From positions 686,419 to 750,418 of the forward strand of contig NZ_CP043653.1 of the NCBI RefSeq assembly GCF_014217685.1: DNA of 64,000 nt, in the 5' to 3' direction. This DNA is from Glaciihabitans sp. INWT7. GTDB lineage: Bacteria > Actinomycetota > Actinomycetes > Actinomycetales > Microbacteriaceae. This document shows, one piece after another, positions 16,377 to 62,279 of this stretch; within the stretch, counting starts at the first letter, position 1; the number at the start of each line of letters is the position of its first letter. The translations under genes were made by a program, and so were the position numbers. The notes beneath the pieces were generated by a model, which saw nothing but the letters and a program-made list of their open reading frames with translations, ran no database searches and was not told the origin of the DNA.

Positions 16377-16468
16377 GCGCAACTCCTGCAATGTGCGGCG
16401 GGGCCGGCGCGGGTGCCCGGATTTGCGGGTGACCATGGCCGGTGCGCAAAAATCTGCAGGAGTTATGC
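16377..16468. repeat. GCATAACTCCTGCA inverted-end element, copy 1 (92 bp)
   Basis: Left end GCGCAACTCCTGCA (two mismatches from consensus), right end TGCAGGAGTTATGC, 64-nt GC-rich interior. It lies between the ilvC terminator and a DUF998 gene in the same direction. The right end contains AGGAG and an ATG in frame with that gene. Confidence 0.85.
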
Positions 16469-16482
16469 ACGAGGCTGGGGGG

Positions 16483-17097
16483 ATGACTCCGCCGCTGGCC
16501 ACCCGGGTTCGCCGGGCATTCGCCCTCGCGGCGATGGTGCTCGTGCTGCTCTACGTGACGATAGACGTCGTGCTCCAGGTGCTGCCTCCGCACTATTCGC
16601 TGCTGAGCGACGCCGAGAGCGACCTCGCCGTCGGACCGTTCGGGTGGGCCATGAACCTCAACTTCCTGGCCCGGGCGGTGATGAGCGGATGCCTCGTCAT
16701 GGCGGTTTCAGTCACGGCTCCGGCCTCTCGGGTGCGGAGAGCCGGCTCGGCCCTCCTCGCAGTGGCGGGTCTCTGCTCCGCGGCCCTCGTGTTCTTCCCC
16801 ACAGACGTCAACCGCCCCGGCGAATTCGGCATGACCCCGCGGACGAGCATCGGGTTCGTGCACGTGCTCTTCGCGACATCCGGATTCCTCGCGGTGCTTG
16901 CGGCCATGGCGCTGCTCACCTGGTGGATCGGGCGACCCCGCGCGGTGAGGCTGTTCTTCGGGGTCGCTCTCGTCGGGCTCGTGCTGCTCGGCATGAGCCT
17001 CGTGGTGCTTCCGCACGTGGTCGGTCTCACCGAGAGGATCTGCCTGCTGGGGATCCTCGGCTGGGCTTTCGTGTTCAGCGTCCGCCTGATTCGCTAG
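16483..17097 (+). CDS. DUF998-type membrane protein
   Basis: A 204-residue membrane protein with about six spans; the segment after the first span (LLSDAESDLAVGPFGWAMNLNF) matches the conserved loop of DUF998 proteins. Function unknown. Start ATG 16483 is chosen because GAGG lies 8 nt upstream; an in-frame ATG at 16465 sits inside the preceding repeat, too close to its AGGAG. The stop TAG overlaps the convergent gene's stop in a CTAG. Confidence 0.7.
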   Translation: MTPPLATRVRRAFALAAMVLVLLYVTIDVVLQVLPPHYSLLSDAESDLAVGPFGWAMNLNFLARAVMSGCLVMAVSVTAPASRVRRAGSALLAVAGLCSAALVFFPTDVNRPGEFGMTPRTSIGFVHVLFATSGFLAVLAAMALLTWWIGRPRAVRLFFGVALVGLVLLGMSLVVLPHVVGLTERICLLGILGWAFVFSVRLIR

Positions 17098-17351
17098 CGC
17101 GGCACCTTCAGCCAGGACATCCCGCGCAGCTCGAGGCAGATGCTGTCCGGCTCCTCGACGACAACCATGAGCACGTCGTCGCACTGGGCGCAGCGCACCA
17201 CATAGCCGGTGGGATCCGGGTAGTCCATCGCGCGAGCCAGCTCCGAGACGTCTCCGCAGCCGAGGCAGCGCGCCGTCGCCAGGGTGAGATCGGCGGAGAA
17301 CAGCTCGGAGAGCGGCCCCGCCAGGGAGTTGCCGTCCACGGGTTCCGGCAT
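17094..17351 (-). CDS. DUF6510-like zinc-ribbon protein
   Basis: 85 residues with two CxxC pairs (CLGCG and CAQCD) about 30 residues apart, a small zinc ribbon. It is the last gene of a three-gene unit with a flavin reductase and a molybdenum oxidoreductase, its ATG overlapping the upstream stop by 1 nt. It could be a metal-binding accessory or electron-transfer helper. The longer frame to 17534 is rejected as a shadow of the reductase. Confidence 0.7.
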   Translation of the reverse strand: MPEPVDGNSLAGPLSELFSADLTLATARCLGCGDVSELARAMDYPDPTGYVVRCAQCDDVLMVVVEEPDSICLELRGMSWLKVPR

Positions 17352-18106
17352 CAGGCGCCTCCGAATCGTTCGGTCTTCACACGCTGCGGGTCGTGCCCGA
17401 GCGCGACGAGGTCGTTCGCGACCGTCTCGACGAATCCGGTCGGCCCACAGACGAACACCGCGGGGGCCAGCGACGCGGCGAAGGCGGATGCCTCGATGTC
17501 GGCGAGCGCGATGCGGGAGGCCGGCCGTGGCCATCCGTCCGGCGTCCGGCGGGTGTACAGCCAGGTGACGTCGAGGTGGGGATTCGGGGTGTCGAGTTCG
17601 GAACGGAAGAACGCGTCATCCGGGGTGCGCACCGAATAGAGCAGCCGGAAGGGGGCAGTGCTGCCCGACGCGGTGTGGGATCGGATCATCGCCATCAGCG
17701 GCACGATCCCTGAGCCTCCGCCGATCAGCTGCACCGATTCGGTCTGGCTTGGCCGCCAGACGAACCAGCCGCCGAGCGGGCCGCGCAGTTCCAGCTCATC
17801 TCCGGGCTGGAGTTCATCCACTAGGTACGGCGACACCTCTCCGGTGGGGAAGCGGTCGACGGCGAGCTCGACCCGGTCCCCGTCCCCCGCCGAGGCGATG
17901 GAGTACGAGCGAACGGCCTGGTACCCGTCCGGCGCGGTGAGCCGCACATCCGCGTGCTGGCCGGCGAGGTTGCCGCCCCAGCCGGGAACGTCGAGCACGA
18001 TGCTGCGTCCGGTGGGAGTCTCGGTATTGGTCGAGACGACCACACCGACATGCCAGAGTCCGACCCGGTGTGGCGGCGCATCCCGGGTCTCGCGTTCGGT
18101 CACCAA
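17351..18106 (-). CDS. FAD/NAD(P)-binding ferredoxin-reductase-type oxidoreductase
   Basis: 251 residues of the FNR fold: FAD-binding barrel with the RSYSIAS motif (Arg-x-Tyr-Ser), GGGSGIVPLMAMI for the nucleotide phosphate, and a C-terminal VFVCGPTGFVE. There is no iron-sulfur domain. It lies between a sulfite-oxidase-like Moco enzyme (7 nt upstream) and the zinc ribbon, suggesting it transfers electrons to or from that Moco enzyme. Confidence 0.85.
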   Translation of the reverse strand: MVTERETRDAPPHRVGLWHVGVVVSTNTETPTGRSIVLDVPGWGGNLAGQHADVRLTAPDGYQAVRSYSIASAGDGDRVELAVDRFPTGEVSPYLVDELQPGDELELRGPLGGWFVWRPSQTESVQLIGGGSGIVPLMAMIRSHTASGSTAPFRLLYSVRTPDDAFFRSELDTPNPHLDVTWLYTRRTPDGWPRPASRIALADIEASAFAASLAPAVFVCGPTGFVETVANDLVALGHDPQRVKTERFGGA

Positions 18107-18113
18107 CGGCCAC

Positions 18114-23349: not shown

Positions 23350-23441
23350 GCATATCTCCTGCAACCCGAGCCCGGCCGCGGGGTCGCGCCCGGGAATCCG
23401 GGGTGCGCCGCACTGCCACGAGCAATCTGCAGGAGTTATGC
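23350..23441. repeat. GCATAACTCCTGCA inverted-end element, copy 2 (92 bp)
   Basis: Left end GCATATCTCCTGCA (one mismatch), right end TGCAGGAGTTATGC (perfect), interior 64 nt. It lies between the phoA PHO box and the 3' end of moaE. Confidence 0.88.
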
Positions 23442-38968: not shown

Positions 38969-39060
38969 GCATAACTCCTGCAATCCGGGGCCTTCACGGC
39001 GACGTTCCCCGTAATCTCGGGGTCGTGCCGAGAACCGGCGCCGCATTGCAGGAGTTATGC
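38969..39060. repeat. GCATAACTCCTGCA inverted-end element, copy 3 (92 bp)
   Basis: Both ends perfect (38969-38982 and 39047-39060), interior 64 nt with an internal CCCC/GGGG hairpin near its centre. It lies between the convergent uraH and guaD 3' ends. Confidence 0.92.
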
Positions 39061-41894: not shown

Positions 41895-41918
41895 CCGCGT
41901 CCCCCTCGTCTGGTCCTT

Positions 41919-42021
41919 TCATTATTCAGGAACCTGTGGGGCGGGAGGGACGACTGTTCACCGGAGGAACTCCGGTAGGCGACATCCGCCCTCTTTGGCC
42001 CCACAGGTTCCTGAATAATGA
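41919..42021. repeat. 103-bp element with 24-bp inverted ends
   Basis: TCATTATTCAGGAACCTG begins the left arm (41919-41942) and the right arm (41998-42021) is its complete complement over 24 bp. The 55-nt interior contains a CCGGAG-GAA-CTCCGG hairpin. It fills the divergent gap between allB and the MTHFR-like gene. Unrelated in sequence to the six GCATAACTCCTGCA elements. Confidence 0.85.
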
Positions 42022-42025
42022 GGGG

Positions 42026-43674: not shown

Positions 43675-43687
43675 CCCGGCAGTACAC

Positions 43688-44080: not shown

Positions 44081-44121
44081 TGCTCGATCATCTCACCCCG
44101 GCGGTCCCCGACTCTCCGGTT

Positions 44122-44212
44122 GCATAACTCCTGCAGTGTGCCCCGGGCCGCGAGAAGTGCCCCGTGTCTGCGGGCACCCCTGCTGGCTGCCCCCAGATTG
44201 CAGGAGTTATGC
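44122..44212. repeat. GCATAACTCCTGCA inverted-end element, copy 4 (91 bp)
   Basis: Both 14-bp ends perfect, interior 63 nt. An extra GGAGTTATGC copy of the outer right end follows at 44217-44226. It sits between two minus-strand PPOX genes. Confidence 0.92.
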
Positions 44213-44241
44213 AGAAGGAGTTATGCGGAGAAGGGCGCAGC

Positions 44242-45608: not shown

Positions 45609-46924
45609 GAGACCTTGGCTCCGGTGGACACCGACGGGGCGACGAGCTTGCCCGGGTTCAGCAGCCGCTGCGGGTCGGTCGTCGCCGCGAGGGCCGCGGT
45701 GCGCTCCGGCTCGAAGTCCACGAACCACTGGTGCGGATTGTGGTATCCGACGCCCAGTTCGGTGAGCTTCTCGAAGCCCGCGAAGACCTCCTCGGCGCTG
45801 GAGTAGACGCCGGCGAGCATGCCGATCGGGCGCTCGTGCTGCGCCTCGATGTGCAGCATGCCGCCGGGGTACACCGCGTGCACCTCGTCGATGCGATCGA
45901 CGAGCGCGTCGCCGCTGACCTCCACGTGGAAGTAGCGGTCGGGGTAGACCTTCTGCAGAAACTCGATCGGGTGGTTGTAGGACATCATGCTGATCCTCAT
46001 CGTGGCCTGCGCGCCTTCACGCACGTCCTCGACCCGGCCCGCGGCCGATTCGACCAGGGCCGTCGCCGCGGCGACCGTCGAGAGATCGAGGATCGCCCGC
46101 AGGCTCGCCCGGTCGGCGGGAATGGCCGGATCCGGCGGCAAGGCGTTGGCCAGGGTCGCCAGGTCCGCCGAGACCAGGCGGGGCGTGGGTTCGAGCGCGC
46201 CGATCTCCCGGATCACGGAGATCGCCTGCTCGAAGGTGTCGAAGCTCGCGAAGAATCCGCGCCAGTCCTGCAGCGGTTCGGTGACGACGGTGGCCCGGGC
46301 GATGATCCCGGCGGTGCCGTAGTTGTGCACGTAGGGCTGGGCGGCCTCACCGGCGACGTGCACGAGCGAGGCATCCTCCACCGCGTGCACCACGTCGAGG
46401 GCGGCGACGAAGCCCTGACTGTTGGAGCCGTGCTTGATCGATCCGGTGCCGCCGGAGCCCCCGGAGAGGAAGCCACCGAGCGAGGAATTGGCCGTGGACG
46501 GATACATCAGGATCTGCTGGCCGGCCTTGTTTGCCGCCTGTTCGAGCGCTGCCATCGATGCGCCGGCCTCCGCGGTGATGAACCCGTCGCCGACCTCGGT
46601 GATCGCCCGGGCGCGGGACATATCGAGCACGAGTCCGCCGGCCATCGGGATGGCCTGGCCGTAGTTGCCGGTGCCCTTGCCGCGCGGGGTGATCGGGATG
46701 CCGTGGCGCACGGCAGCCGCGACGGTCGCGGCGATCAGCTCCGCGCTGGCCGGGTAGGCCACGAGCTCCGCGAGCCCGAGAGGCAGCTGCTCCTTGATCA
46801 CGGGGGAGAGGTGTGCGCCGTCGGTGGAGGCCCGCTGCCGTGCGGCCAGTTCGACGCTGACGCCGCGGTCGCCGAGCAGTTCGCGCAACTCGGCCTCGAG
46901 TGCGGCGATGGGGGAGTCGTTCAT
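45605..46924 (-). CDS. FAD-binding (GlcD/VAO-type) oxidoreductase
   Basis: 439 residues with a PCMH-type FAD domain: PRGKGTGNYGQAIPMAGGLVLDMSR, the ITAEAG and YPSTANSSLGGFLSGGSGGTGSIKHG loops, and the C-terminal STDPQRLLNPGKLV of the glycolate oxidase group. Oxidises an alcohol, hydroxyacid or amine; substrate unknown. It overlaps the creatininase start by 4 nt. Confidence 0.85.
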   Translation of the reverse strand: MNDSPIAALEAELRELLGDRGVSVELAARQRASTDGAHLSPVIKEQLPLGLAELVAYPASAELIAATVAAAVRHGIPITPRGKGTGNYGQAIPMAGGLVLDMSRARAITEVGDGFITAEAGASMAALEQAANKAGQQILMYPSTANSSLGGFLSGGSGGTGSIKHGSNSQGFVAALDVVHAVEDASLVHVAGEAAQPYVHNYGTAGIIARATVVTEPLQDWRGFFASFDTFEQAISVIREIGALEPTPRLVSADLATLANALPPDPAIPADRASLRAILDLSTVAAATALVESAAGRVEDVREGAQATMRISMMSYNHPIEFLQKVYPDRYFHVEVSGDALVDRIDEVHAVYPGGMLHIEAQHERPIGMLAGVYSSAEEVFAGFEKLTELGVGYHNPHQWFVDFEPERTAALAATTDPQRLLNPGKLVAPSVSTGAKVS

Positions 46925-46963
46925 CAGTGGTCCTTCGGATCGAATGTCAGTGCAGGTTCACAG

Positions 46964-47752
46964 TCAGTGCATGACCATTCCGCCGGTGACGTTGATCGCC
47001 TGTCCGGTGAGATAGTCGGCGTCGGGGGACGCGAGGAACAGGGCGACGCCCGCGACATCCGCGGGCTCGCCGAGTCGGCCGAGCGGGGAGTATCCGCACC
47101 AGGTGGCGATGTCCTCGTCGGTGCGGGTGGCGGCACCCATGTCGGTGAGCACGTAGCCGGGGCAGAGGGAGTTGACCGTGATGCCGTGGGTTCCCCACTC
47201 CAGCGCGGCCACGCGGGTCAGCGCGACGACAGCGGCCTTCGAGGCGGCGTAGTGACCTTCGCCGGCTCCGCCGGTCTTCGCTGCCATGCTGGCGAGGTTG
47301 ATGATCTTGCCCCCGCAACCGGCCGCGATCATCGCCCGGGTGGCCACCTGCATGGTGGTGAGCATGGCGCGGGCGTTGACCGAGAACATCTCGTTCCAGT
47401 CGGTCACGGTCACCTCGAGCAACGGGGAGAAGCGCAGGATGCCGGCGCTGTTGACGAGGATGTCGACGCCGCCGAGGTGGTCGATCGCGCGGGCGGTGGC
47501 GTCTGCCGTGTCCAGGGGGTCGACCAGATCGACCGGGATGAAGGTGCCGCCGACCTCGGAGGCCAGCCGGGTGCCCTCCTCGACCAACCGGTCGAGAACG
47601 ACGATCCGCGCACCCTCCGAGGCGAAGCGGCGCGCGATCTCGCCGCCGATTCCCCGAGCGCCACCGGTGACGACGACACGCTTCGTGAGAAGTCGCTGTC
47701 CGGCGAGCCGCGCGGGGCGGGCCAGGGTCGTCGTCACCAGTGGATCACTCAT
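46964..47752 (-). CDS. SDR-family oxidoreductase (FabG-like)
   Basis: 262 residues: VTGGARGIGGEIARRFA for NAD(P), NSAGILRF, catalytic serine in NLASMAA, YAASKAA for Tyr/Lys, and the C-terminal TGQAINVTGGMVMH. Part of the unknown catabolic operon, 7 nt after the substrate-binding protein gene. Confidence 0.87.
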   Translation of the reverse strand: MSDPLVTTTLARPARLAGQRLLTKRVVVTGGARGIGGEIARRFASEGARIVVLDRLVEEGTRLASEVGGTFIPVDLVDPLDTADATARAIDHLGGVDILVNSAGILRFSPLLEVTVTDWNEMFSVNARAMLTTMQVATRAMIAAGCGGKIINLASMAAKTGGAGEGHYAASKAAVVALTRVAALEWGTHGITVNSLCPGYVLTDMGAATRTDEDIATWCGYSPLGRLGEPADVAGVALFLASPDADYLTGQAINVTGGMVMH

Positions 47753-47759
47753 GGGTGGT

Positions 47760-48935
47760 TCAGAATCCGATCGATGTGTCGAGGAATTCGTTGGTGAAGA
47801 GGTCGGCCGCCTTGAGGCCGGTCTTCGGCGCGGAACCCGAGGCGGTGAACAGCGGGGTGTCGATGTCGATGACCTTCTGCACGCGGGCCTCATCCATGTC
47901 GCCGACATAGGCGTTGGATCCGTTCGAGGCGATCTTGAGCTTCTTCATCTGGCTCACGCCGAAGTCCGCGACCTTCTCGGAGTAGACCCAGCCGTTGTTG
48001 AACGCCGTCACGAGGTCGGTGACCAGCTTGTTGGTGGCGGCAGGCTTGGAGATGTAGTCCACATCGGCCTGCTGCAGCACCGGCACGAGCTTCTTGAGGC
48101 ACGGGCTGAGGGTGGAGAGCTCCGACGAACGAACCGACATCGCCTCGGGATAGATGGGGTATCCGGTGTCGTTGATCAACTGGAAGTTGACGGGCTTGCC
48201 CCAGGCCGAGACCTCGTTCTGGTAGATGTACGGCTCGGCGGTGGCGAAGCCCTGCTGGCCGTCCTTGCCCTTGGCGGTGACGAACTTCGCCGGGGTGCCG
48301 TCGTAGGCGCCATCGGTCTGGGCCTCGGGAAGGATGCCCGATCCCTGCAGGTAGCCCATGTACGCCGCGCCCTGGAAGTAACGCACGACTCCGCCGTCAT
48401 CCTTCAGCGCGGTGGCGAGATCCTTGATGGTCTTGACCTTGGGGTAGGTCGCCGGGTCCCACATGATCATCTGCGGGGAGATGTCGTTCTCGGCGAAGAC
48501 CGCGGTCGTCGGCAGGCTCGCGGACAGCTGCACGGCCTCGTCGGTGGAGACGTAGCCGAGGGTGATGTCCTTGTCCTTGTACATCTCCGAGCTCACCGTC
48601 GAGAATCCGATGGCCGGTCCGCCGGACCGGATCTCCACCTTCACGCCGGTGGACTTGCCACTGGCGTACAGGTCGCCGCTCACGGACTTCTTGTCGGCGT
48701 TGATCACCGGGTTCGGTCCGAGCAGCTGGTAGAGGTGACCGTGGTCGGCCTCCGGGTTCCAGTCGGTCTGGATGGTGACGGTGGCCGGGCAGACACCGGA
48801 GAGGTCGACGGCGCCTGCTGCGGCGGTCGGGGCTGTACTGCTGCTCGGCGACGCACTGGCACAGCCGGCCAGGGCGATTCCTGCAGCGAACACCATGCCG
48901 ACGGCGATGGTGGAGCGGACTGCTGTTTTGTGCAT
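47760..48935 (-). CDS. ABC transporter substrate-binding lipoprotein (NMT1/THI5-like)
   Basis: 391 residues with a lipoprotein signal: hydrophobic core then LAGC (lipid Cys near residue 25). The mature start, VTIQTDWNPEADHGHLYQLLG, resembles THI5/NMT1-type proteins that bind thiamine-precursor pyrimidines, riboflavin or other small N-compounds. It is paired with the permease and ATPase upstream. The ligand is probably the feedstock of this operon. Confidence 0.85.
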   Translation of the reverse strand: MHKTAVRSTIAVGMVFAAGIALAGCASASPSSSTAPTAAAGAVDLSGVCPATVTIQTDWNPEADHGHLYQLLGPNPVINADKKSVSGDLYASGKSTGVKVEIRSGGPAIGFSTVSSEMYKDKDITLGYVSTDEAVQLSASLPTTAVFAENDISPQMIMWDPATYPKVKTIKDLATALKDDGGVVRYFQGAAYMGYLQGSGILPEAQTDGAYDGTPAKFVTAKGKDGQQGFATAEPYIYQNEVSAWGKPVNFQLINDTGYPIYPEAMSVRSSELSTLSPCLKKLVPVLQQADVDYISKPAATNKLVTDLVTAFNNGWVYSEKVADFGVSQMKKLKIASNGSNAYVGDMDEARVQKVIDIDTPLFTASGSAPKTGLKAADLFTNEFLDTSIGF

Positions 48936-49008
48936 TGGGACTCCTCGTGTGCTGTGTGATTCTGCGGGTGATTGCGAACGGTGGTGCGGGTGGAAATCTG
49001 TGGGCGGA

Positions 49009-49881
49009 TCAGCCGAAGTCGTACCACTTGCCGATGGCCAGTCGGCTGAGCCATCCGAAGAGCAGGAAGACGGCGACGCCGAGCAGCGATGCGGTGAGGA
49101 TGGCCGCGTAGGTGCCCGCGCCGTTCAGTCGGGAGGTCGAGACCTGGATCAATACGCCGAGCCCGGGCGTTCCCCGCTGGAAGAACTGGTCCCCGACGAT
49201 CGCGCCGATGACCGAGAGCCCCGCGGCGTTGCGCAGCCCAACGAAGATCGACGGGAGGGCCGCCGGAAACTGCAGCTTGGTGAGGGTGGTCCACTTGCTC
49301 GCGCCCTGGAGCTTGAACAGTTCGCGCTGGGCGAGATCCGTCGACTGAAGTCCGAAGAGCGTGTTCGACACCATCGGGAAGATCGAGATCATCACTGTCA
49401 CGATCACGCGGGAGAGGAATTCGTAGCCGAACAGTGCGCCGATCAGCGGCACCAGCGCGAGGATCGGGATGCACTGCAGGATCACCGCATAGGGGAACAG
49501 GGATCGCTCGACCCACTTGGCTTGCGCCATCAACGTCGCCCAGACGACACCGATCACGATCGCGATCACGAGCCCGGTGAGGGCGACCTGGGTGGAGTTG
49601 CCGAGGTCGGCCACGAGCTGCGGGGTGAACAGTGGGTCCGCGAACGCGGCCTTCACCACGAGGTGCGGGTAGGGCACGAGGAAGGCGAGCTGCTGGCTGG
49701 CGTAGTAGTTCGCCACGAGATACCAGAGCCCGACCAGCACCGCGAGAACGGCGAGCGGCGGCCACCATTGATTGGCGCGCCGGGCGTAGACCCGGTTGAT
49801 GCGCGCCTGCCGGAGCGCACGAGGGGAGAGAGAATTTCCGGCGCCCGCGCCGGAAGCGATTCCCGAGCCTGCGACAGACAT
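49009..49881 (-). CDS. ABC transporter permease (SsuC/ThiX type)
   Basis: 290 residues, about six spans, with the EAA loop KLQGASKWTTLTKLQFPAALPSIFVGLRNAAG (Gly-containing contact helix). N-terminal 35 residues are polar. It shares a base with the stop/start junction of the ATPase gene. Confidence 0.88.
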   Translation of the reverse strand: MSVAGSGIASGAGAGNSLSPRALRQARINRVYARRANQWWPPLAVLAVLVGLWYLVANYYASQQLAFLVPYPHLVVKAAFADPLFTPQLVADLGNSTQVALTGLVIAIVIGVVWATLMAQAKWVERSLFPYAVILQCIPILALVPLIGALFGYEFLSRVIVTVMISIFPMVSNTLFGLQSTDLAQRELFKLQGASKWTTLTKLQFPAALPSIFVGLRNAAGLSVIGAIVGDQFFQRGTPGLGVLIQVSTSRLNGAGTYAAILTASLLGVAVFLLFGWLSRLAIGKWYDFG

Positions 49882-50672
49882 CAGTGGTGCCCCTCTCGCA
49901 GCGCGTGGGACACTTCGCCGACCAGCTCCGCGAACTCCGCGGTGAAGCGGATGTCCGGATCCCGCGGCATCGGGAACGGCACGTCGAAGGTGCCGACGAT
50001 CGATCCGGGGCGGCCGGACATCACGATGACCTTGGTGGAGAGGTAGACGGCTTCTGAGACCGAGTGGGTGATGAAGAGGCCGGCGAACTGCTTCTCGACG
50101 AAGAGCTTGAGAAGCTCGTCGTTCAGTCGCTCGCGGGTGATCTCGTCGAGGGCGCCGAATGGCTCGTCGAAGAGGAACAGCTCCGGCTCGAGGGTGAGAG
50201 AGCGGGCGAGCGAGGTGCGCATCTTCATCCCGCCGGAGAGCTGCTTGGGCAGGTTCTTCTCGAAGCCAGAGAGGCCGACCAGTTCGATCGCCTCTTTCGC
50301 CTTCGCCTGACGTTCTTTCGGCTTCACGCCGTTGAGTTCGGCGAGAAGCTCGACGTTGTCCTGCACCGTGCGCCAGGGAAGCAGCGTCGCGTCCTGGAAG
50401 ACATAGCCGATGCGCTTCGTGTCGACCTCTGCCGTGCCCTCAGAGGCGGTTTCGAGACCGGAGGCGATTCGCAGGAGGGTGGATTTTCCGCAGCCGGAGG
50501 GTCCGACGACGGTGACGAACTCCCCCCGGTTCACGGTGAGGTCGATGCCGCTGAGGGCGACGGTGCCGTTGGGGAACTGCATCGCGACATTGCGGAAGTC
50601 GAGCAGTGTGCCACTGGATGCAGCGCTGCGAGACGGTTTCATGAGTGCTGGGGCGGACATGCTCAGCATCAC
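49881..50672 (-). CDS. ABC transporter ATP-binding protein (SsuB/TauB type)
   Basis: 263 residues with Walker A GPSGCGKST, Q-loop FQDATLLPW, signature LSGGMKMRTSLARSL, Walker B LFLFDEPFGALDE and H-loop ITHSVSEA. Start taken as ATG 50672, overlapping the deaminase-like stop; ATG 50660 is also possible. Confidence 0.9.
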   Translation of the reverse strand: MMLSMSAPALMKPSRSAASSGTLLDFRNVAMQFPNGTVALSGIDLTVNRGEFVTVVGPSGCGKSTLLRIASGLETASEGTAEVDTKRIGYVFQDATLLPWRTVQDNVELLAELNGVKPKERQAKAKEAIELVGLSGFEKNLPKQLSGGMKMRTSLARSLTLEPELFLFDEPFGALDEITRERLNDELLKLFVEKQFAGLFITHSVSEAVYLSTKVIVMSGRPGSIVGTFDVPFPMPRDPDIRFTAEFAELVGEVSHALREGHH

Positions 50673-51943
50673 CTCGTTTCGGCTAGGGAGGGGGCGGGGG
50701 AATCTACGGCGACGCGAGGCGCGGCAACGTCGTAACTGACGGTGCTCTGCGCCACGAGACGGCCGGCGTGGATGACGAAGCGGTCCGCTGAGGCGTTGGC
50801 GATGACATCCGAGAGGTTGGTCCCGCGCACGGCGAGGAGCTCGGCCGCTGCGCCGACCTCGACCCCGGCGAGAGGAAGCGACATCACCGAGCGAGCCCCG
50901 GAGCTCACGGCCGCGTACGCCTCGTCGAGCGTGAGGTGCCCGGCGGAGACGAGCAGTGAGGCGGTCTCCAGCGCATCGCTGCGCCCCACCGGGTTGAACG
51001 GATCGCGCACGTTGTCGGCTCCGGCCGCGACGCGCACCCCGGCATCGAGCAGTGCCCGCAGCGCGGTGAGCCCGCGCGGGGTGCCGACCGGATGCTGCCA
51101 GCCCTGCAGGTAGAGGTTGGTGATGGGCAGCGAGATGATGCCGAGATCGCTCGCGAGCACCTCGGTGATGACGGCGGCGAGTTTTGTCGGTTCGAGAGTG
51201 CCCAGGCGCACGCAGTGGCCCGCGGATGCCGGCACCGTCCAGTCGCGAACGAGCCGCGCGTACTCTCCGAGGGTCGGTGCGCCGGTGAGGCTCTCGTCGG
51301 TGTGGATGTCGCTGCCGACACCGCGTCGCTCGGCGATGGCGATGAGGCGGCGGAGGTCGGCGAGCGGATCTTCGGCCAGGTGCGGGGCGCCGCCCACCAG
51401 GTCCACGCCGAGGTCGAGGGCTTCATCGACGAGTTCGCTTGGCACGAACGGCCCGGCGAGCGCGACGAGTTCGATGTCCATCAGGTCGCGGAGTTCCTCG
51501 CGCACGCGCACGAGCGCGCGCACTCCGCGCATCGGGTTGTCGCCCACGAGCATGTCAACATGCGTGCGCACCGCGGTGGTACCCTGTCGCAGAAGCAGCA
51601 TCGCCGCCTGGCGAGCCCGCTCGGCGATGCTCTCGACCGTCATCACCGCGGTGTAGTCACGCCAGGATTCGATCGCGAGCTCCAGGTCACCCATCGGCGG
51701 ATCGATGAGATCCCACGACAGGGCCTTGTCGAGGTGTGCGTGGGGTTCGGCGGGAGCCGTCAGCAGCAGGAAGCCGGTCAGGTCGAGTGTCGAGCCGTCA
51801 TTCTGGATCTCGGTGCTGTCGGCGAGAGTCGCCGCGGGGAACACGCCGCTCACCGTGCCGCCCTCGAGCGTGACATCCACTCGCGAGCCATCGGGAAGAG
51901 TTGCATTCGTCAGCTGGCGGATGCTGCGGGGCAGGGATGACAC
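50669..51943 (-). CDS. Cytosine-deaminase-like amidohydrolase
   Basis: 424 residues of the CodA branch of metal-dependent hydrolases: PAEPHAHLDKALSW for the first His pair, GTTAVRTHVDM, DIHTDE and SAGHCVRLG for later His, and AAGADNVRDPFNPVG for the catalytic aspartate. It would deaminate a cytosine-like ring or hydrolyse a related heterocycle. GTG 51943 has GAGGAAGG upstream. First gene of the operon, divergent from the XRE-cupin regulator. Confidence 0.85.
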   Translation of the reverse strand: MSSLPRSIRQLTNATLPDGSRVDVTLEGGTVSGVFPAATLADSTEIQNDGSTLDLTGFLLLTAPAEPHAHLDKALSWDLIDPPMGDLELAIESWRDYTAVMTVESIAERARQAAMLLLRQGTTAVRTHVDMLVGDNPMRGVRALVRVREELRDLMDIELVALAGPFVPSELVDEALDLGVDLVGGAPHLAEDPLADLRRLIAIAERRGVGSDIHTDESLTGAPTLGEYARLVRDWTVPASAGHCVRLGTLEPTKLAAVITEVLASDLGIISLPITNLYLQGWQHPVGTPRGLTALRALLDAGVRVAAGADNVRDPFNPVGRSDALETASLLVSAGHLTLDEAYAAVSSGARSVMSLPLAGVEVGAAAELLAVRGTNLSDVIANASADRFVIHAGRLVAQSTVSYDVAAPRVAVDSPAPSLAETR

Positions 51944-52009
51944 GGTGCGGCACCTTCCTCGAACGACGGGGGTGGGCGACCATCGCACCGGTGAGTTGGT
52001 CGCTGAAAA

Positions 52010-52028
52010 ATGTTGATATCGTCAACAT
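52010..52028. promoter_or_regulatory. Inverted repeat in the XRE/deaminase divergent region (candidate operator)
   Basis: ATGTTGATATCGTCAACAT: perfect 7-bp arms and a 5-nt spacer, AT-rich compared with its surroundings, 66 nt from the deaminase-like start and 133 nt from the regulator. A likely binding site for the adjacent XRE-cupin protein. Confidence 0.55.
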
Positions 52029-52049
52029 CATCGAATCTAGGGATGCCCC

Positions 52050-52087
52050 GTTTCCGACATGTAACGGCATCGTTTCCATCTATTAAG
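52050..52087 (-). promoter_or_regulatory. GlnR-type nitrogen box
   Basis: On the minus strand the words CTTAA-n6-GAAAC-n6-GTTAC-n6-GAAAC repeat every 11 nt, matching the actinobacterial GlnR pattern gTnAC-n6-GaAAC-n6-gTnAC-n6-GaAAC in three of four words exactly. It points toward the deaminase/ABC operon, 107 nt from its start. Confidence 0.65.
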
Positions 52088-52161
52088 CCTGAGTCCGTCG
52101 GGTTGCCCGGGCCGCTCCCGTCCTGCAAGATCGCTAGCGCTCTCACAGTGAGGAGGACCCC

Positions 52162-52746
52162 GTCACTACCGTCGATTCCGCGATTGACCTGCAAGCCGAA
52201 CGAATCGGCATCCGCATCCGTCAACTGCGTCGAGCCAGAGGACTAACTTTAGTCCAGCTCGCGGTGAGCGCAGACCTGTCGCACCCCTTCCTGAGCCAGC
52301 TGGAGCGCGGCCGGGCGCGTCCGAGCATGACCTCGCTGGAGAAGATCGCCCGCGCCCTCGGCAGCAGCCAGCTCGAGCTCATGGCCGCGGCGGAGGATGA
52401 CGCGGCCGACCAGTCGGACATCGTGGTGGTGCACGCCGACCAGGGCACGCGAGGCCCCTACGGCGACGGGGAGGGACGCCTGCTCGTGCACGGCCGGCGA
52501 CGGTTCCACCCCATGGAGTTCCGCGGCTCCAACCAGGTGCCCGGCGAGTTCTACGAGCACGAGGGCGACGAATTCCTTCATGTGGTCTCCGGGGTCGTGA
52601 TCGTGGATTTCGAGGGTCGCGAATCTTCGGTGCTGAGCGCCGGCGACTCCGTCTACTTCGCGGGCGGCATCCGTCATCGGTGGCATGCCGCCGAACCGGG
52701 CGGCTACCGGCTGTTCGTCGTGAAAGAGAAGCCGGAGTCGCGATGA
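52162..52746 (+). CDS. XRE-family regulator with cupin domain; no normal start codon
   Basis: About 194 residues. The HTH (AERIGIRIRQLRRARGLTL, SHPFLSQLERGRARPS) is followed by a cupin (VPGEFYEHEGDEFLHVVSG, GDSVYFAGGIRHRWHA) that senses a small molecule. The frame is open from 52138 but has no ATG, GTG or TTG before GTG 52264, which would delete the first HTH helix. AGGAGG (52151-52156) sits 5 nt before a GTC codon (52162) exactly where the family would begin with GTG-Thr-Thr. Either the start has mutated or a rare start is used. A TTA codon is also present. Confidence 0.7.
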   Translation, partial: VTTVDSAIDLQAERIGIRIRQLRRARGLTLVQLAVSADLSHPFLSQLERGRARPSMTSLEKIARALGSSQLELMAAAEDDAADQSDIVVVHADQGTRGPYGDGEGRLLVHGRRRFHPMEFRGSNQVPGEFYEHEGDEFLHVVSGVVIVDFEGRESSVLSAGDSVYFAGGIRHRWHAAEPGGYRLFVVKEKPESR

Positions 52747-53684
52747 GTTCGCACGAGACAGAGTTCGACGCCATCGTGGTCGCCCGCACGCAGGTCGCCG
52801 ACTCGATCGACGTCTTCGAAATCGCGCGCTCCGATGCCTCATCGCTGCCGCACTGGCAACCGGGCGCGCACATCGACCTCGTGCTGCCCTCGGGCGACGA
52901 ACGCCAGTACTCGCTGCTTCCTGCGCCGGTGCCGGATGCCCCGACGTGGCGCATCGCCGTATTGCGGGAGCCGACGGGCCGGGGCGGTTCGGTGTGGCTT
53001 CACGACGCGCTCGCGGTGGGTGACACGATCCGGGTTCGGGGTCCGCGCAATCACTTCGAATTCTCGCCGTTCCCCGGCTCTCCCGTGCTGCTGCTTGCGG
53101 CCGGGGTGGGCATCACGCCGATCGCGTCGATGGCACGCGCGGCTGCGGCCTCCGGCATCCGCTACGAGCTGCACTACTCGGGGCGATCCCGGTCTGCCCT
53201 CGCACTGCTCGACGAGATCGGGGAGGCGACGCTCCATCTCAGCGACGAGGGCACGCGCGTGGATCTCGCGGAGCTGCTCGGCTCGCTCGACCCGATGGCC
53301 ACGATCTACGCGTGCGGGCCCACCCGGTTCATCGAGGCTGTCGAGGCCGCCGCGGGCGGGCATCCGCTGCACGTCGAGCGCTTCGAAGCCAAACCGCTGG
53401 CGGCTCCGGTGTTCGAGGGCGCCTTCGAGGTGGAGCTTGCCCTCAGCGGCGAGACCCTCACCGTGCCGCCGGACCGGAGCATCCTCGAGGTGGTGGAGGA
53501 GGCTGGCGTGTTCGTGCTGTCGAGCTGCCGCGAGGGCACCTGCGGCACCTGTGAGACGCCGGTTCTGGAGGGCGAGGTCGACCATCGCGACTCGATCCTC
53601 ACGCCCCTCGAGCAGGAGCAGAATTCCGTGATGTACATCTGCGTCTCGCGGGCGGCCTGCCCGAGGCTGGTGCTGGAGCTCTAG
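52743..53684 (+). CDS. PDR/VanB-type flavin reductase with C-terminal 2Fe-2S ferredoxin
   Basis: 313 residues: FMN/FAD barrel (RQYSLLPAPV), NAD site (LLAAGVGITPIASM, YACGPTRFIEAV) and a C-terminal plant-type ferredoxin with cysteines in SSCREGTCGTC and one near YICVSRAAC. Such reductases feed Rieske or other oxygenases, but no oxygenase lies in the window. It overlaps the XRE-cupin stop by 4 nt. Confidence 0.9.
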   Translation: MSSHETEFDAIVVARTQVADSIDVFEIARSDASSLPHWQPGAHIDLVLPSGDERQYSLLPAPVPDAPTWRIAVLREPTGRGGSVWLHDALAVGDTIRVRGPRNHFEFSPFPGSPVLLLAAGVGITPIASMARAAAASGIRYELHYSGRSRSALALLDEIGEATLHLSDEGTRVDLAELLGSLDPMATIYACGPTRFIEAVEAAAGGHPLHVERFEAKPLAAPVFEGAFEVELALSGETLTVPPDRSILEVVEEAGVFVLSSCREGTCGTCETPVLEGEVDHRDSILTPLEQEQNSVMYICVSRAACPRLVLEL

Positions 53685-53690
53685 CCTCCG

Positions 53691-53736
53691 CTGGTCGAGT
53701 AGGTCGCTTTCGCGAGAGTGGGCCTACGCGACCGGC
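53691..53736. repeat. CTGGTCGAGTAGG palindromic repeat, between convergent genes
   Basis: Left arm CTGGTCGAGTAGG (53691-53703), right arm GGCCTACGCGACCGGC (53721-53736). The right arm contains the stop and last codons (PVA) of the minus-strand deaminase gene. A bidirectional terminator role is plausible. Confidence 0.65.
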
Positions 53737-55010
53737 ACCCGCTCTGCCAGCGCCGCCACTAGTTCGCGTTCGTCGGCATCGACCAGTTGGTAGTCCCTAA
53801 CGACCACCCGTCCGGCCACGACCACGTGTTTCGGGCGGCGCCCGGGATTCGCCCACAGCAGGCCGGCCACGGGATCCGCGACGCCGGAATCGGCGACCCC
53901 CGACACGTCCCAGACGCACAGATCCGCGGCGGATCCGGCACGGAGGGTGCCGAGCTCGGCACGGCCGAGCCCGGCGGCTGAGCCAGCCATCGCCATGGCC
54001 AGCACCTCTCGCGCCGCGATCGGCGGCCCGACGAGGGGCGCGACCTGCATGGCGAGCCGGGCATCCGCCAGCAGGTGTCCCGCATCGTTGCTCCCGCCGC
54101 CGCTGGTGCCGAGGCCCACGACGATGCCGGCGGACCTCAGCGCCGCGACCGGCGCGATCCCCCACCCCATCGGAAGGTCGCAGCCGGGCGCGTGGGTGGC
54201 CGTGATGCCGGATGCCGCGAGCCGCCGGATCTCCTCGCCGGTCACGTCGCAGAGGTGGGCGAGTGTCACGCCCGGCTCGAGCCAACCCCAGTCCTCGAGC
54301 AGGTCGATCGGTCTTCTGCCGTACTTCTCCAGGGCGATCGCGACATCCACCTGCTCGTTGGCTTGCGTGCGCCGCCGCAGCCCGTGCTTCGCGGCGACCT
54401 CGGCGAACAGCTCGAAGGTCTCCCGACTGTCGCTGTGCACTCCGGCCGGACCGACGGCGAGCTGCAGCATCCCTTCGCCGGTGCGGGGGAGCAGCGCCTG
54501 CACGATGGCCTCGGCCGAGCTCGCGGCCTCCTGCGGATCGTCCCGCGCGGATCCCCGCACGAAGACCAGCCGGCCGCCGAGGGCGCGTGCGGCGTCCGCT
54601 GTCGCGGTGGCGATGGCCACCGAATCTGCGCCGCTCGGCCAGGTGAGGTGATGATCCGCGACCGTCGTGACGCCGCAGAGCAATCCTTCGGCAACGCCCA
54701 CGGACGCCGCGACCGCTGCGAGCTCGGCGTCGACGCCCGCTCGGCCGTAGGCCGCTGCCATGGTGGGCAGCCAGTCGCGCATCGCCACCCCACGCGTGCC
54801 GGGCAGGGTGCGGAAGGCGGACTGCAGCAGGTGGTGGTGCGCATTGACGAGTCCCGGCGTGACGACGCATCCGCTCGCATCGAGGGTCTGGGCGTTCTCG
54901 CCCGGCATCGGTTCATCGGTCGCGACCACGCCGTCTCGCAGCACCAGGTCGCCATGACGTTCGGTCGCTTCGTCGACGAGGATCCGGGTCGCGCCGGTGA
55001 TTGTGAGCAT
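53724..55010 (-). CDS. 8-oxoguanine deaminase-like amidohydrolase
   Basis: 428 residues of the ATZ/TRZ-like amidohydrolase group: GLVNAHHHLLQSAFRTLPG for the first metal His pair, GVTTVADHHL, HAHLCD-like LAHLCDVTGEE for the later His, and GTSGGGSNDAGHLLADAR where related deaminases have DGSASND. Beside xdhC, 8-oxoguanine to urate is the best guess. The gene's last codons are repeat-derived. Confidence 0.78.
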   Translation of the reverse strand: MLTITGATRILVDEATERHGDLVLRDGVVATDEPMPGENAQTLDASGCVVTPGLVNAHHHLLQSAFRTLPGTRGVAMRDWLPTMAAAYGRAGVDAELAAVAASVGVAEGLLCGVTTVADHHLTWPSGADSVAIATATADAARALGGRLVFVRGSARDDPQEAASSAEAIVQALLPRTGEGMLQLAVGPAGVHSDSRETFELFAEVAAKHGLRRRTQANEQVDVAIALEKYGRRPIDLLEDWGWLEPGVTLAHLCDVTGEEIRRLAASGITATHAPGCDLPMGWGIAPVAALRSAGIVVGLGTSGGGSNDAGHLLADARLAMQVAPLVGPPIAAREVLAMAMAGSAAGLGRAELGTLRAGSAADLCVWDVSGVADSGVADPVAGLLWANPGRRPKHVVVAGRVVVRDYQLVDADERELVAALAERVPVA

Positions 55011-55075
55011 GGTGATTTTCTAGCACCCGCGTGTGTCCGGCACGTGACATCCCGCCGGCACCGCCGTGCCCTGTG

Positions 55076-55156
55076 GCATAACTCCTGCAATCTGCCTCCC
55101 GGCGAGGAGGATTGGGTCGGAATCGGCCCTGTGCCGGTCAATTGCAGGAGTTATGC
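55076..55156. repeat. GCATAACTCCTGCA inverted-end element, copy 5 (81 bp)
   Basis: Both 14-bp ends perfect, interior 53 nt. It lies in the divergent control region between the deaminase and xdhC genes. Confidence 0.92.
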
Positions 55157-55202
55157 GGCGGAAGTGGGGCAGACCATACCGGCGGCGGACGCCCAGCCCG
55201 CC

Positions 55203-55239
55203 GTAACCGGCGCGTCACGCGGCTGTGTCATCCTGAAAC
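55203..55239 (+). promoter_or_regulatory. 11-nt-phased GTNAC-like words next to the xdhC start
   Basis: GTAAC-n6-GTCAC-n6-GTGTC-n5-GAAAC ends 1 nt before ATG. The words and spacing are GlnR-like, but the last spacing is one short. Weak prediction. Confidence 0.25.
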
Positions 55240-55240
55240 C

Positions 55241-56140
55241 ATGTTCGAGATCGCGGATCGCCTGCTCGCCGCCGTGGCCGCCGGGAGTCGGCTGGCCGTG
55301 GCGACGGCCGTCTCGATCGACGGCAGCGCGCCCCGCACCGTCGGCACCTCGATGGCGTTCGACGGCATGTCCGTCATCGGCAGCATCGCGGGTGGATGCG
55401 TCGAGGGCGCGGTCGTCGACACCTGCGAGCTCGTCCTCGCCGACGGCGTCACGCGCACCGTCGAGTATGGCGTGAGCGACGAGACCGCCTACTCGGTCGG
55501 GCTCACCTGCGGGGGCCGGCTGCGCATCCAGGTGCAGCTGCTCACCGACGATCTCGTGGAGGCGCTGCGAACCCGGCGAGAGATCGAGGTCTGCTCGGGA
55601 TTCACCGAACGGCCACCGGTCGAACGCCACCTGATCGTGTTCGGTGCGATGGAGTTCTCCGCCGCCCTGTCGACGGCCGCGCAGGTGCTCGGCTACCGGG
55701 TGACGGTCTGCGACCCCCGACCTCTCTTCATGACGCCGGAGCGATTTCCGGGAGCCGACGTCATCGTCGCCTGGCCCACGGCCTGGTTCGAGACCGCGGA
55801 GGTCGATGCCCGAACCGTGATCTGCGTTCTCAGCCACGATGCCCGGTTCGATGCCGAGCTCGTCGCGCTCGCGCTCGCATCGCCCGCGGGATTCGTCGGG
55901 GCCATGGGCTCCCGCCGCACGCACGACCGCCGCGTCGCCTCGCTGCGCGAGCGCGGGGTCGCCGAGGAATCGATCGCGCGACTACGCTCGCCGATCGGTC
56001 TCGATCTCGGCGGCAGCACAGTGGAAGAGACCGCTGTGGCGATCCTCGCCGAGGTGATCGCGGCCCGGTCCGGGGCATCCGCGCTGCCGCTGTCTGCGAC
56101 CTCGGGCACGATCCACCGCCTAAGTCTGCTGGTCGAGTAG
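55241..56140 (+). CDS. xdhC: XdhC-family Moco maturation factor
   Basis: 299 residues: N-terminal VATAVSIDGSAPRTVGTSMAF, GSIAGGCVEGAVV (the conserved Gly-Gly-Cys), GLTCGGRLRIQV, then a Rossmann-like C-domain (HLIVFGAMEFSAAL, GFVGAMGSRRTHDRR, PIGLDLGGSTVEETAVAILAE). It inserts sulfurated molybdenum cofactor into xanthine dehydrogenase. Its last residues LLVE and stop are encoded by a palindromic repeat. Confidence 0.9.
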   Translation: MFEIADRLLAAVAAGSRLAVATAVSIDGSAPRTVGTSMAFDGMSVIGSIAGGCVEGAVVDTCELVLADGVTRTVEYGVSDETAYSVGLTCGGRLRIQVQLLTDDLVEALRTRREIEVCSGFTERPPVERHLIVFGAMEFSAALSTAAQVLGYRVTVCDPRPLFMTPERFPGADVIVAWPTAWFETAEVDARTVICVLSHDARFDAELVALALASPAGFVGAMGSRRTHDRRVASLRERGVAEESIARLRSPIGLDLGGSTVEETAVAILAEVIAARSGASALPLSATSGTIHRLSLLVE

Positions 56141-60948: not shown

Positions 60949-61353
60949 ATGGCGACAGAACCGGATGACGCAGGCCTCAGTTGGGGCGATGAGACCGACC
61001 CGACCCATGTCGACGCTCCCGTCGTCGACGAACCCGGAGACGGCACCTCGCCCGGCGAACCGGGAACGAGTTCGGCTCTGCTCGTGACGCTTGGCGTGTT
61101 CGGCGGAATCTTCCTTCTTTTCACCGTGGGTTGGATCATCGGCGTGCAGCGCAGCACCGTGCCATCCACCGGCCTGTTCTTCGTCTTCATGTACCGGCTC
61201 GGCCAGGTGCTCGCCGTCCTGGCACCGGCGGCCTGGTTCGTCGGCGTGCTCGTGCTGGCCCGCGATCGCCGGTCCGGGGTGCGCATCCTCTTGCTCCTGC
61301 TCGGAGTGGTGCTGCTCGCGCCGTGGCCCTTCATTCTCGGACTGGGAGCCTGA
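60949..61353 (+). CDS. Hypothetical membrane protein, acidic N-terminus
   Basis: 134 residues: an acidic disordered start of about 43 residues, then three hydrophobic spans with a basic loop RDRRSG. It begins 4 nt after mtlD and shares a base with the next start (TGATG), so the three genes may form one operon. Unknown function. Confidence 0.65.
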   Translation: MATEPDDAGLSWGDETDPTHVDAPVVDEPGDGTSPGEPGTSSALLVTLGVFGGIFLLFTVGWIIGVQRSTVPSTGLFFVFMYRLGQVLAVLAPAAWFVGVLVLARDRRSGVRILLLLLGVVLLAPWPFILGLGA

Positions 61354-61757
61354 TGACCGACCCGACCCCCGTAGACCCCGTGTCGCCGGCCCCGGAACCG
61401 GATGCCGCCCCGCGTCCGGCCGCCACATCGGGCCGCGCGCGCATCGGGTGGCTCAGCCTCAGTATCGCGATCCTGTTCGGACTCTTCTACGTCTACGACC
61501 TCTTCGAGGCGATCTCGAACGTCGTGGGCGTGACGTCGCAGATCAACCTCTACAACGAGGCGCGTGCCGTCGTGAAGCTCGACCCGGTGCCGATCCCCTG
61601 GGGATGGCTTGTCATCGACGTGCTGCTGGCGCCGGTGGTGTTCGCCATCGCCTTCATCATCGGGCGACGCAAGTCCGTGTTGCTCAAGGTGCTGCTCTTC
61701 GTGATCGGGCTCACCCTCGTGGCCGCGACGACCCTGTCGGTGGAAGCCCTCGCCTGA
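61353..61757 (+). CDS. Hypothetical membrane protein, paired with the upstream gene
   Basis: 134 residues: a Pro/Ala-rich 27-residue start, then three hydrophobic spans separated by an Asn/Glu-containing loop and IIGRRKS. Same size and plan as its neighbour, so the two may interact. Start ATG 61353 overlaps the upstream stop. Confidence 0.65.
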   Translation: MTDPTPVDPVSPAPEPDAAPRPAATSGRARIGWLSLSIAILFGLFYVYDLFEAISNVVGVTSQINLYNEARAVVKLDPVPIPWGWLVIDVLLAPVVFAIAFIIGRRKSVLLKVLLFVIGLTLVAATTLSVEALA

Positions 61758-61769
61758 GGTGGCCTCCCG

Positions 61770-62171
61770 CTAGCGGGGAACGGTCACGATCGAGACCAGG
61801 ATTATCGCGATGAGGACCAGCTGGGCGATGTAGCGCGGCCAGAACGGAATGGCTGCCGCGCCGAACTTCTCCGGATGCTCCGAGGCGAGGTGATTCGCGG
61901 GGAACACCGCGACGAGAAACACCACGAGCATGATTCCGGCGAGAAATGTCGTCACCGGCACGAGCAACCCGATCCCTCCCGCGATCTCGCAGACGCCCGT
62001 GAACCGCACGAGGGTCTTCCCGCTGATCAGGCCGCCCCGGGTGAAGTACTCCGGAATCATCGCCGCCATGCCTCGGGCCGGTCCCGGGCGGAAGTGGTTG
62101 ATGCCCATCCCCACGAAGACGATCGCCAGGAGGATGCGGAACACGAGCTGCACGGTCTCGAAGGCGGTCAT
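61770..62171 (-). CDS. DoxX-family membrane protein
   Basis: 133 residues with four spans and the DoxX pattern: RILLAIVFVGMGINHF, KTLVRFTGVCEIAGGIGLLVP, and a C-terminal WPRYIAQLVLIAIILVS. DoxX-like proteins are linked to redox or detoxification complexes, but the role here is unknown. Divergent from serA across an inverted-end element. Confidence 0.82.
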   Translation of the reverse strand: MTAFETVQLVFRILLAIVFVGMGINHFRPGPARGMAAMIPEYFTRGGLISGKTLVRFTGVCEIAGGIGLLVPVTTFLAGIMLVVFLVAVFPANHLASEHPEKFGAAAIPFWPRYIAQLVLIAIILVSIVTVPR

Positions 62172-62198
62172 CCGTCCATTGTCCCAGCCGTCGGCTTC

Positions 62199-62279
62199 GC
62201 ATAACTCCTGCAGAATCCCGGCCAGAGCCCCTTCCGCCGGGATTCTGCCCCCACAGCCGGCGGGCTGCAGGAGTTATGC
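62199..62279. repeat. GCATAACTCCTGCA inverted-end element, copy 6 (81 bp)
   Basis: Both 14-bp ends perfect, interior 53 nt. A second, inner inverted repeat AGAATCCCGGC/GCCGGGATTCT adds 11 bp near the left end. It lies in the doxX-serA divergent region. Confidence 0.93.

What the first reader, a model, noticed from the sequence alone, without database searches (positions are those of the whole stretch)
16377..62279. Six-copy family of small elements with GCATAACTCCTGCA inverted ends and two fixed lengths
Copies at 16377-16468, 23350-23441, 38969-39060, 44122-44212, 55076-55156 and 62199-62279 share 14-bp inverted ends (four copies perfect, two with 1-2 mismatches in the left arm). Interiors are unrelated in sequence, yet lengths are 92, 92, 92, 91, 81 and 81 bp, a step of about one helical turn. 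All are intergenic; both 81-bp copies lie in divergent promoter regions. Length under constraint with sequence free suggests protein-bound ends at a set phase, or a structured RNA with a conserved base stem, rather than a simple transposon remnant. I know of no named family with these ends.
Basis: partly seen in the sequence, partly recalled or inferred. Interest (0 to 1): 0.85.

Follow-up and report, generated by a model that had tools for sequence, protein, structure and literature searches.

The report
Nuclease-linked mobile DNA elements, fixed length
Six short DNA segments with matching inverted ends belong to a family of small mobile elements in actinobacteria that appears tied to one nuclease gene bracketed by the same elements, much as REPIN elements depend on an unrelated enzyme in other bacteria.

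Summary
The host genome holds 24 such elements of 81, 91-93 and (one) 102 bp; 13 genomes of its genus and of Cryobacterium hold 152. Interiors are mostly free, but the 92-bp class has a central palindrome and the 81-bp class has AT-rich steps every 10.1 bp. Nothing inside covaries convincingly, so duplex DNA rather than folded RNA seems to be recognised.

The key lies outside the window. One gene for a putative winged-helix plus Vsr-like nuclease (MTES_1575/DUF559) sits between these elements. Paralogs and homologs sit between elements with other end sequences and usually one length per locus (26 of 32 loci; controls 0 of 128 and 0 of 300). Three families predicted from such flanks were found dispersed in their genomes. 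Element number follows the gene (6-23 with, 0-4 without). Copies with similar interiors but unrelated flanks, and occupied versus empty sites, show movement.

It works like REPIN-RAYT but fails that membership test: different enzyme, no palindromic REP ends. Binding and cutting by the nuclease are inferred, not shown.

The parts
16377..16468 (.). family-1 element, 92 bp (left arm 2 mismatches)
23350..23441 (.). family-1 element, 92 bp (left arm 1 mismatch)
38969..39060 (.). family-1 element, 92 bp, centre CCCCGTAATCTCGGGG; interior 70% identical to the element at C1:2296650, with unrelated flanks
44122..44212 (.). family-1 element, 91 bp
44213..44226 (-). extra family-1 end (2 mismatches) abutting the previous element
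55076..55156 (.). family-1 element, 81-bp class
62199..62279 (.). family-1 element, 81-bp class
41920..42020 (.). element of a second family (ends CATTATTCAGGAA, 101 bp) whose nuclease gene lies at C1:583729-584535, outside the window

Best explanation
The elements are non-autonomous, dispersed DNA units that depend on a single-copy gene for a putative winged-helix plus Vsr-like PD-(D/E)XK nuclease. In this genome that gene is at C1:551825-552643, about 134 kb outside the window, and it sits between copies of the element. I infer that a variable DNA-binding part of the nuclease recognises the 14-20 bp ends, and that a dimer or larger assembly joins the two inverted ends of one element over a sharply bent piece of DNA. 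This would fix the length and helical phase while leaving most interior sequence free. Bending would be helped by 10-bp AT phasing in the short class and by a central palindrome, perhaps a shared contact or a host-protein site, in the long class. Cutting at or near such a complex would let elements spread in trans between genes, as REPINs are thought to do with RAYTs. Shown by sequence: the gene-element linkage, family-specific ends and lengths, dispersal, number following the gene, past movement. Inferred: binding, bridging, cutting and the route of copying.
For: (1) Linkage: elements flank the gene in the own genome and in Cryobacterium. Of 34 loci fetched by protein search, 2 had short flanks; 26 of the other 32 have an element with the same 12-mer ends on both sides (at most 4 mismatches in all). 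Left and right spans agree within 2 bp in 22 of 26 and differ by 11-12 bp, about one helical turn, in the other 4. Shuffled flanks: 0 of 128 below 7. 300 random 880-bp segments: none at 4 or less, two at 5. (2) Prediction tests: ends read from the flanks of two own-genome paralogs gave 9 elements of 76-77 bp and 15 elements, 13 of them 99-101 bp, two of each set being the flanking ones; a genome of another family of the class gave 4 elements, all 73 bp, two of them away from the gene. Reversed-pattern controls for these single-end searches were zero. (3) Dosage: in the two main genera, 10 genomes with the gene have 6-23 elements and 9 without have 0-4 (Mann-Whitney p 1e-4). (4) Movement: paralogous elements 86, 70 and 69% alike inside with unrelated flanks; one orthologous site has an element or at least one core end in 10 of 30 loci and none in 20. 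(5) Architecture: fixed lengths, AT phase, centre motif shared by families with different ends (16 of 18 strong hits within 4 bp of the centre, 3.0 expected). (6) Enzyme: DUF559 30.2 bits, over its cut-off; PF18741 E 5.5e-9 and AbiEi_4 E 6e-4, both a little under their cut-offs; E, D and E-x-D residues kept; best fold matches 3hrl and homing endonuclease I-Bth0305I.
Against: No binding, cutting or transposition was measured. The own-genome protein matches Pfam only weakly (PF18741 E 0.23) and neither protein matches NCBIfam. The AlphaFold model is poor (mean pLDDT 47.5); the two fold matches have E 0.098 and 0.33 and rest on the C-terminal part. 6 of 32 homolog loci lack a clear pair, among them an own-genome paralog (L190). 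Three genomes with elements have no homolog at E<=1e-40 (G076, G193, G392), though only six candidates per genome were scored. No target-site duplication. The occupied site differs from the empty one by about 150 bp, not exactly the element. Weak extra mirror symmetry (p 0.02-0.04 in three of ten tests) is unexplained. The co-occurrence tests do not correct for shared ancestry, and some genomes without the gene are incomplete (four at 78-90%).
Confidence: 0.68

Rival explanations
1. Operator model. The protein is mainly an autoregulator and DNA-architecture factor; the elements are its binding sites, kept by selection as regulatory or nucleoid-organising sites, and nuclease activity is lost or incidental.
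For: Ends, phase and centre are conserved at orthologous sites while interiors drift like the flanks. Fixed phase and AT steps fit a bridging protein. The N-terminus weakly resembles AbiEi-type regulators.
Against: Catalytic residues are kept in the homologs aligned, two mistranslated rows aside. Whole elements were copied to sites with unrelated flanks. Elements sit in convergent, tandem and divergent gaps alike (33, 59, 18 of 135).
Confidence: 0.2
2. MITE-like remnants of a classical DDE or HUH transposon whose terminal repeats are GCATAACTCCTGCA; the nuclease gene is a passenger.
For: Terminal inverted repeats, small size, intergenic dispersal and unrelated flanks.
Against: In the own genome the facing ends pair at 81-102 bp and the longer spans looked into held no transposase. 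The same bracketing recurs for homologs with different ends. No target-site duplication. Transposase genes were not searched for genome-wide.
Confidence: 0.06
3. Structured RNA with a conserved base stem, transcribed from the elements.
For: The ends could pair; a few single copies contain an inner hairpin, for example the window copy at 62199.
Against: No convincing covariation inside: centre pairs 230 observed against 230.3 in shuffles for the 92-bp class. No Rfam match over gathering score in the window. A 10.1-bp AT phase is a feature of duplex DNA.
Confidence: 0.03

Closest known systems
REPINs and RAYTs (REP-associated tyrosine transposases)
   Same: Pairs of inverted conserved ends with a spacer, extragenic, characteristic spacings (71 and 110 bp in P. 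fluorescens SBW25), tied to a gene flanked by the same repeat (PMC3116915, abstract and passages seen).
   Different: Enzyme is a putative winged-helix plus Vsr-like nuclease, not a tyrosine transposase; ends are not palindromic REPs; no covariation pointing to hairpins; a central motif shared across families or a 10-bp AT phase; actinobacteria.
MITEs of insertion sequences
   Same: Short, non-autonomous, terminal inverted repeats, dispersed (recalled definition).
   Different: No transposase with matching ends seen in the own genome, no target-site duplication, length held within 1-2 bp per class while interiors diverge.
Vsr-like homing endonucleases (I-Bth0305I) and DUF559 proteins (3hrl)
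   Same: C-terminal domain resembles them by fold search and profile.
   Different: Homing endonucleases are not known to me to be bracketed by copies of a short inverted-end element with dispersed relatives (recalled, not tested here).
Integron attC sites
   Same: Short sites with inverted ends and variable interior (recalled).
   Different: Dispersed between ordinary genes rather than in cassette arrays; fixed length; tied to a nuclease gene. No integrase search was run.

Membership tests
REPIN-RAYT | cognate tyrosine (Y1/HUH) transposase gene flanked by the repeat | tested here: not met
   the flanked gene matches DUF559/PF18741 with an AbiEi_4-like N-terminus and no transposase model in Pfam
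REPIN-RAYT | each end an imperfectly palindromic REP | tested here: not met
   GCATAACTCCTGCA has at most a 3-bp self-pairing; by inspection
REPIN-RAYT | two inverted ends at characteristic spacing, extragenic, dispersed in the genome | tested here: met
   (11 of 135 fell inside a called ORF, caller rough)
REPIN-RAYT | mobilised by the flanked gene's product | not testable with these tools
   needs experiment; the dosage link is indirect
MITE | autonomous element with the same terminal repeats and a known transposase | tested here: inconclusive
   none seen among paired ends of the own genome; unpaired ends and other genomes not examined
MITE | target-site duplication | tested here: not met
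   159 flank pairs, k=2-10, none clearly above shuffles
Vsr-like PD-(D/E)XK nuclease | catalytic E, D, E-x-D core on an alpha-beta fold | tested here: met
   residues; order of helices and strands in a low-confidence model
structured RNA family | compensatory base changes or Rfam match | tested here: not met
integron attC | cassette array next to an integron integrase | not tested
   dispersed placement argues against; no integrase search was run

The most novel reading that the evidence does not exclude
A previously unrecognised class of bacterial mobile DNA, present in several actinobacterial families, in which a Vsr-like restriction-fold nuclease with a winged-helix domain acts as the transposase. 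It recognises family-specific ends, in many families together with a shared central site, bridges a bent 60-105 bp duplex at fixed helical phase, and copies elements without target-site duplication. One genome can host several such gene-element families side by side.
Probability: 0.4. Interest if true: 0.92.

Novelty: new variant of a known kind. Interest (0 to 1): 0.85.

Why it matters
It would give a job to a poorly understood group of proteins, annotated on plasmids as AbiEi-family antitoxin domain proteins, of which one genome can hold five or six. It would also show that the REPIN way of life, small elements living on a resident single-copy enzyme, arose again with an unrelated nuclease. 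Because each family has its own end sequence and length, and at least three families coexist in this genome, specificity can be tested directly by swapping ends between families.

Tried and rejected
RNA structure: Rfam scan of the window at gathering scores found nothing; pair covariation and mirror-pair tests found no convincing stem beyond the ends, apart from weak symmetry (p 0.02-0.04 in three of ten tests). Pfam DUF559 alone missed the key gene in the own genome; it was found by reading the ORF between three clustered elements and by protein search. The nuclease model was poor (pLDDT 47.5), so the fold search is used only for the C-terminal part. In one search my script read two of 36 homologs (L201, L210) in a wrong frame; those rows are disregarded. 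Target-site duplication: none. The seven IMG/VR stretches and five genome-contig loci (L084, L118, L148, L156, L173) match the short search pattern but lack the GCAT...ATGC outer ends, so I count them as chance matches. Promoter or terminator role: of 135 elements 33 lay in convergent, 59 in tandem and 18 in divergent gaps, 11 inside a called ORF, 2 far from genes and 12 without a called neighbour on one side, against 76, 176 and 84 for all gaps of 100 bp or more (rough gene caller); only a slight convergent excess. Plasmid and phage collections: four plasmid records and one phage record with weak matches; of three plasmid loci fetched, the Actinomyces oris one has a clean 106-bp pair, the two Tsukamurella ones are doubtful. 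Site A (81 bp in three species, 91-92 bp in two) may hold independent elements, since the near flanks align poorly. Rows left out before counts: one search used 7 of 9 family-2 and 10 of 15 family-3 elements, one search used 12 of 15 family-3 elements (equal or near-equal lengths only), and one search used 56 chosen elements (12 of 15 of family 3; families under 73 bp left out). AT period of the other classes: best fits 13.9 (92 bp), 9.2 (93 bp) and 9.4 (family 3, 3 of 300 shuffles as strong), so the clean 10-bp phase is a feature of the short classes only. Literature: ten full-text searches (DUF559 with inverted repeat; DUF559; Cryobacterium with palindromic; MTES_1575; REPIN with RAYT and Actinobacteria; REPIN with RAYT and spacer; AbiEi with palindromic, repeat elements and Actinobacteria; interspersed with Vsr and homing endonuclease; miniature inverted-repeat with Microbacteriaceae; REPINs with nuclease and Microbacterium) gave listings in which I saw no report of this linkage; I saw passages of PMC3710099 and PMC3116915 only.
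Full report
Observation. All six copies exist as described. The window is C1:686419-750418 of a 3.48-Mb genome. Its GTDB genus seems to contain Lacisediminihabitans profunda: genome G139 of that genus has contigs of the same lengths (304069 and 207506) as records of that species. A search for single ends, without a length limit, gave 29 forward and 29 reverse matches against 6 and 4 for the reversed control. Pairing them by hand gives 24 elements of 81, 91, 92, 93 and 102 bp; five forward and five reverse ends stay unpaired, for example beside the element at C1:433049 and in the window at 44213.

Spread. With exact ends, 10 of 398 genomes of the family have pairs, in 2 of 85 genera. With the 10-bp core, 17 of 396 genomes and 4 of 85 genera have pairs, reversed control zero; 152 of the 162 pairs are in 13 genomes of the two main genera. 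Of 174 distinct end pairs in everything then held, 160 are 78-105 bp long and 147 of those are 80-82 or 91-93 bp. That set includes orthologs and is limited by the gap ranges of the scans; the own-genome list is not so limited.

Anatomy. In the 92-bp class the ends continue as A-W-T-Y and the centre is a near-palindrome CC(C/G)CG-N-R-A-T-T-N-CGGGG. In the 81-bp class (20 copies) AT content swings between roughly 10% and 90% with a period of 10.1 bp over the interior, and none of 300 shuffles is as strong. A family of 77-bp elements shows the same (7 of its 9 copies; period 9.7, 0 of 300). No pair of interior positions covaries convincingly, and mirror pairing at the centre of the 92-bp class equals shuffles. 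This points to recognition of duplex DNA at a fixed helical phase.

The gene. Three elements cluster around one ORF in the own genome (C1:551423, 551617, 552713) and in Cryobacterium. The Cryobacterium product (313 residues as called) matches DUF559 over its cut-off, and PF18741 (REase_MTES_1575) and AbiEi_4 a little under theirs; the own-genome product matches PF18741 only at E 0.23. PF18741 is named after a Vsr-type nuclease domain described in PMC3710099 (passages seen). The own-genome gene is 48% identical to the Cryobacterium one. In ten genome-contig loci that encode the protein, elements were present, but those loci had been fetched for their elements, so the unbiased test is the one that starts from the protein.

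Generality. Homologs at E<=1e-40 occur in 55 of 396 genomes. For the 30 best loci of that search and the four own-genome paralogs (34 in all), I asked whether one 12-mer forms an inverted pair 62-116 bp long on each side of the gene. Two loci had flanks too short. Of the other 32, 26 do with at most 4 mismatches in total; shuffled flanks gave nothing below 7 in 128 trials. Left and right spans agree within 2 bp in 22 of the 26; in the other four they differ by 11-12 bp, about one helical turn. These loci are not independent: nine are the Cryobacterium and own-genus family. The six misses are L190, L200, L204, L211 (left side only), L215 and L219. A second set of 28 loci from a phylum-wide sample (7 of 296 genomes with E<=1e-12) and from plasmids gave 18 at score 5 or less against 0 of 112 shuffles; without five repeats of own-genome loci it is 14 of 23. 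Random 880-bp segments gave 0 of 300 at 4 or less and 2 at 5. One hit of the second set, on a Tsukamurella plasmid, is a GC-rich word and doubtful.

Related ends. Written side by side many of the ends look like one diverging half-site: CATAACTCCTGCA, CATAACTCATGCAG, CATAACTCAGCCTGC, GCTAACTCAGGCTG, TTCGCAATTCAGGC, CATCATTCAGGAA, CGAAATGCAGGAA, AAAACGCAGGAG. More distant homologs have ends with no visible likeness, such as GATCGTACTGACCCGTAT or GGGAACACATTC. This comparison is by eye.

Prediction tests. The ends beside the own-genome paralog at C1:639025 were searched in the genome: 9 elements of 76-77 bp, seven of them away from the gene. The ends beside the paralog at C1:583729 gave 15 elements (ends with up to 3 mismatches), 13 of them 99-101 bp, two flanking the gene and one in the window at 41920-42020. 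In genome G682 of another family: 4 elements, all 73 bp, two away from the gene. The reversed-pattern controls of the three single-end searches were zero.

Dependence on the gene. Of 17 genomes with pairs 14 have a homolog at E<=1e-40, against 41 of 379 without pairs (Fisher p 1e-10, not corrected for ancestry). Within the two main genera, ten genomes with the gene hold 6-23 elements and nine without hold 0-4 (p 1e-4). Only six candidates per genome were scored, and four of the nine genomes without the gene are 78-90% complete.

Movement and age. Three within-genome pairs have interiors 86, 70 and 69% identical with unrelated flanks on both sides, one being the window copy at 38969 and the copy at C1:2296650; the 86% pair is 1.6 kb apart. 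Other similar pairs are close tandem copies. At one convergent intergenic site in Cryobacterium, all 57 genomes searched have a match; among the 30 best loci, 10 have the element or at least one core end between the flanks and 20 have neither, with both neighbours in place. The extra DNA in occupied sites is about 150 bp. Among occupied orthologs the ends, the centre and the length mostly stay while the rest drifts. Left and right elements of some genes are nearly or fully identical and in direct orientation (L189, L302, L242).

Shared centre. A matrix from the 92-bp class was run over 56 chosen elements of other families. Of 18 with a strong hit, 16 have it within 4 bp of the centre, where 3.0 are expected. 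The Actinomyces oris plasmid elements, with unrelated ends, carry CCGCGTGATTCCGCGG (one copy exactly, one with a change) at the centre. The 99-bp family and the short families examined gave no strong hit.

Mechanism. I take the nuclease to bind the ends with a variable part, to bridge them over bent DNA, and to cut, so that elements spread in trans. Linkage, specificity of ends, dosage and movement are shown by sequence; binding, bridging and cutting are inferred. The closest working model is REPIN-RAYT (PMC3116915, abstract and passages seen); the enzyme and the ends differ, so it is an analogue and not a member.

Limits. The structure model is weak. Three element-bearing genomes lack the gene at the threshold used. 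Six of 32 homolog loci lack a clear pair. Insertion boundaries and copying route remain open, and there is no target-site duplication.

Noticed in passing
window 41920-42020: A 101-bp element of another nuclease-linked family (ends CATTATTCAGGAA) with a 23-bp perfect outer stem and an inner CCGGAG/CTCCGG hairpin.
   Followed up: yes
window 40557-56140: By eye, genes of purine breakdown (an allantoinase-like, an amidohydrolase and an XdhC-like product) lie around the elements at 41920 and 55076.
   Followed up: no
L302:1375-1437 and 2430-2492: The 63-bp elements left and right of a nuclease homolog are identical, including 10 bp beyond the left end; looks like recent duplication or conversion, and would allow loss of the gene by direct-repeat recombination.
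   Followed up: partly
L004 (C1:551213-554304): Beside the nuclease gene the own genome has what looks by eye like a fragment of the HAD-type hydrolase gene that lies next to it in Cryobacterium (L086:670-1419), suggesting an old shared location.
   Followed up: no
C1:2296475 and 2296650; L127:7621 and 7815: Tandem pairs of elements about 170-195 bp apart recur in several genomes.
   Followed up: partly
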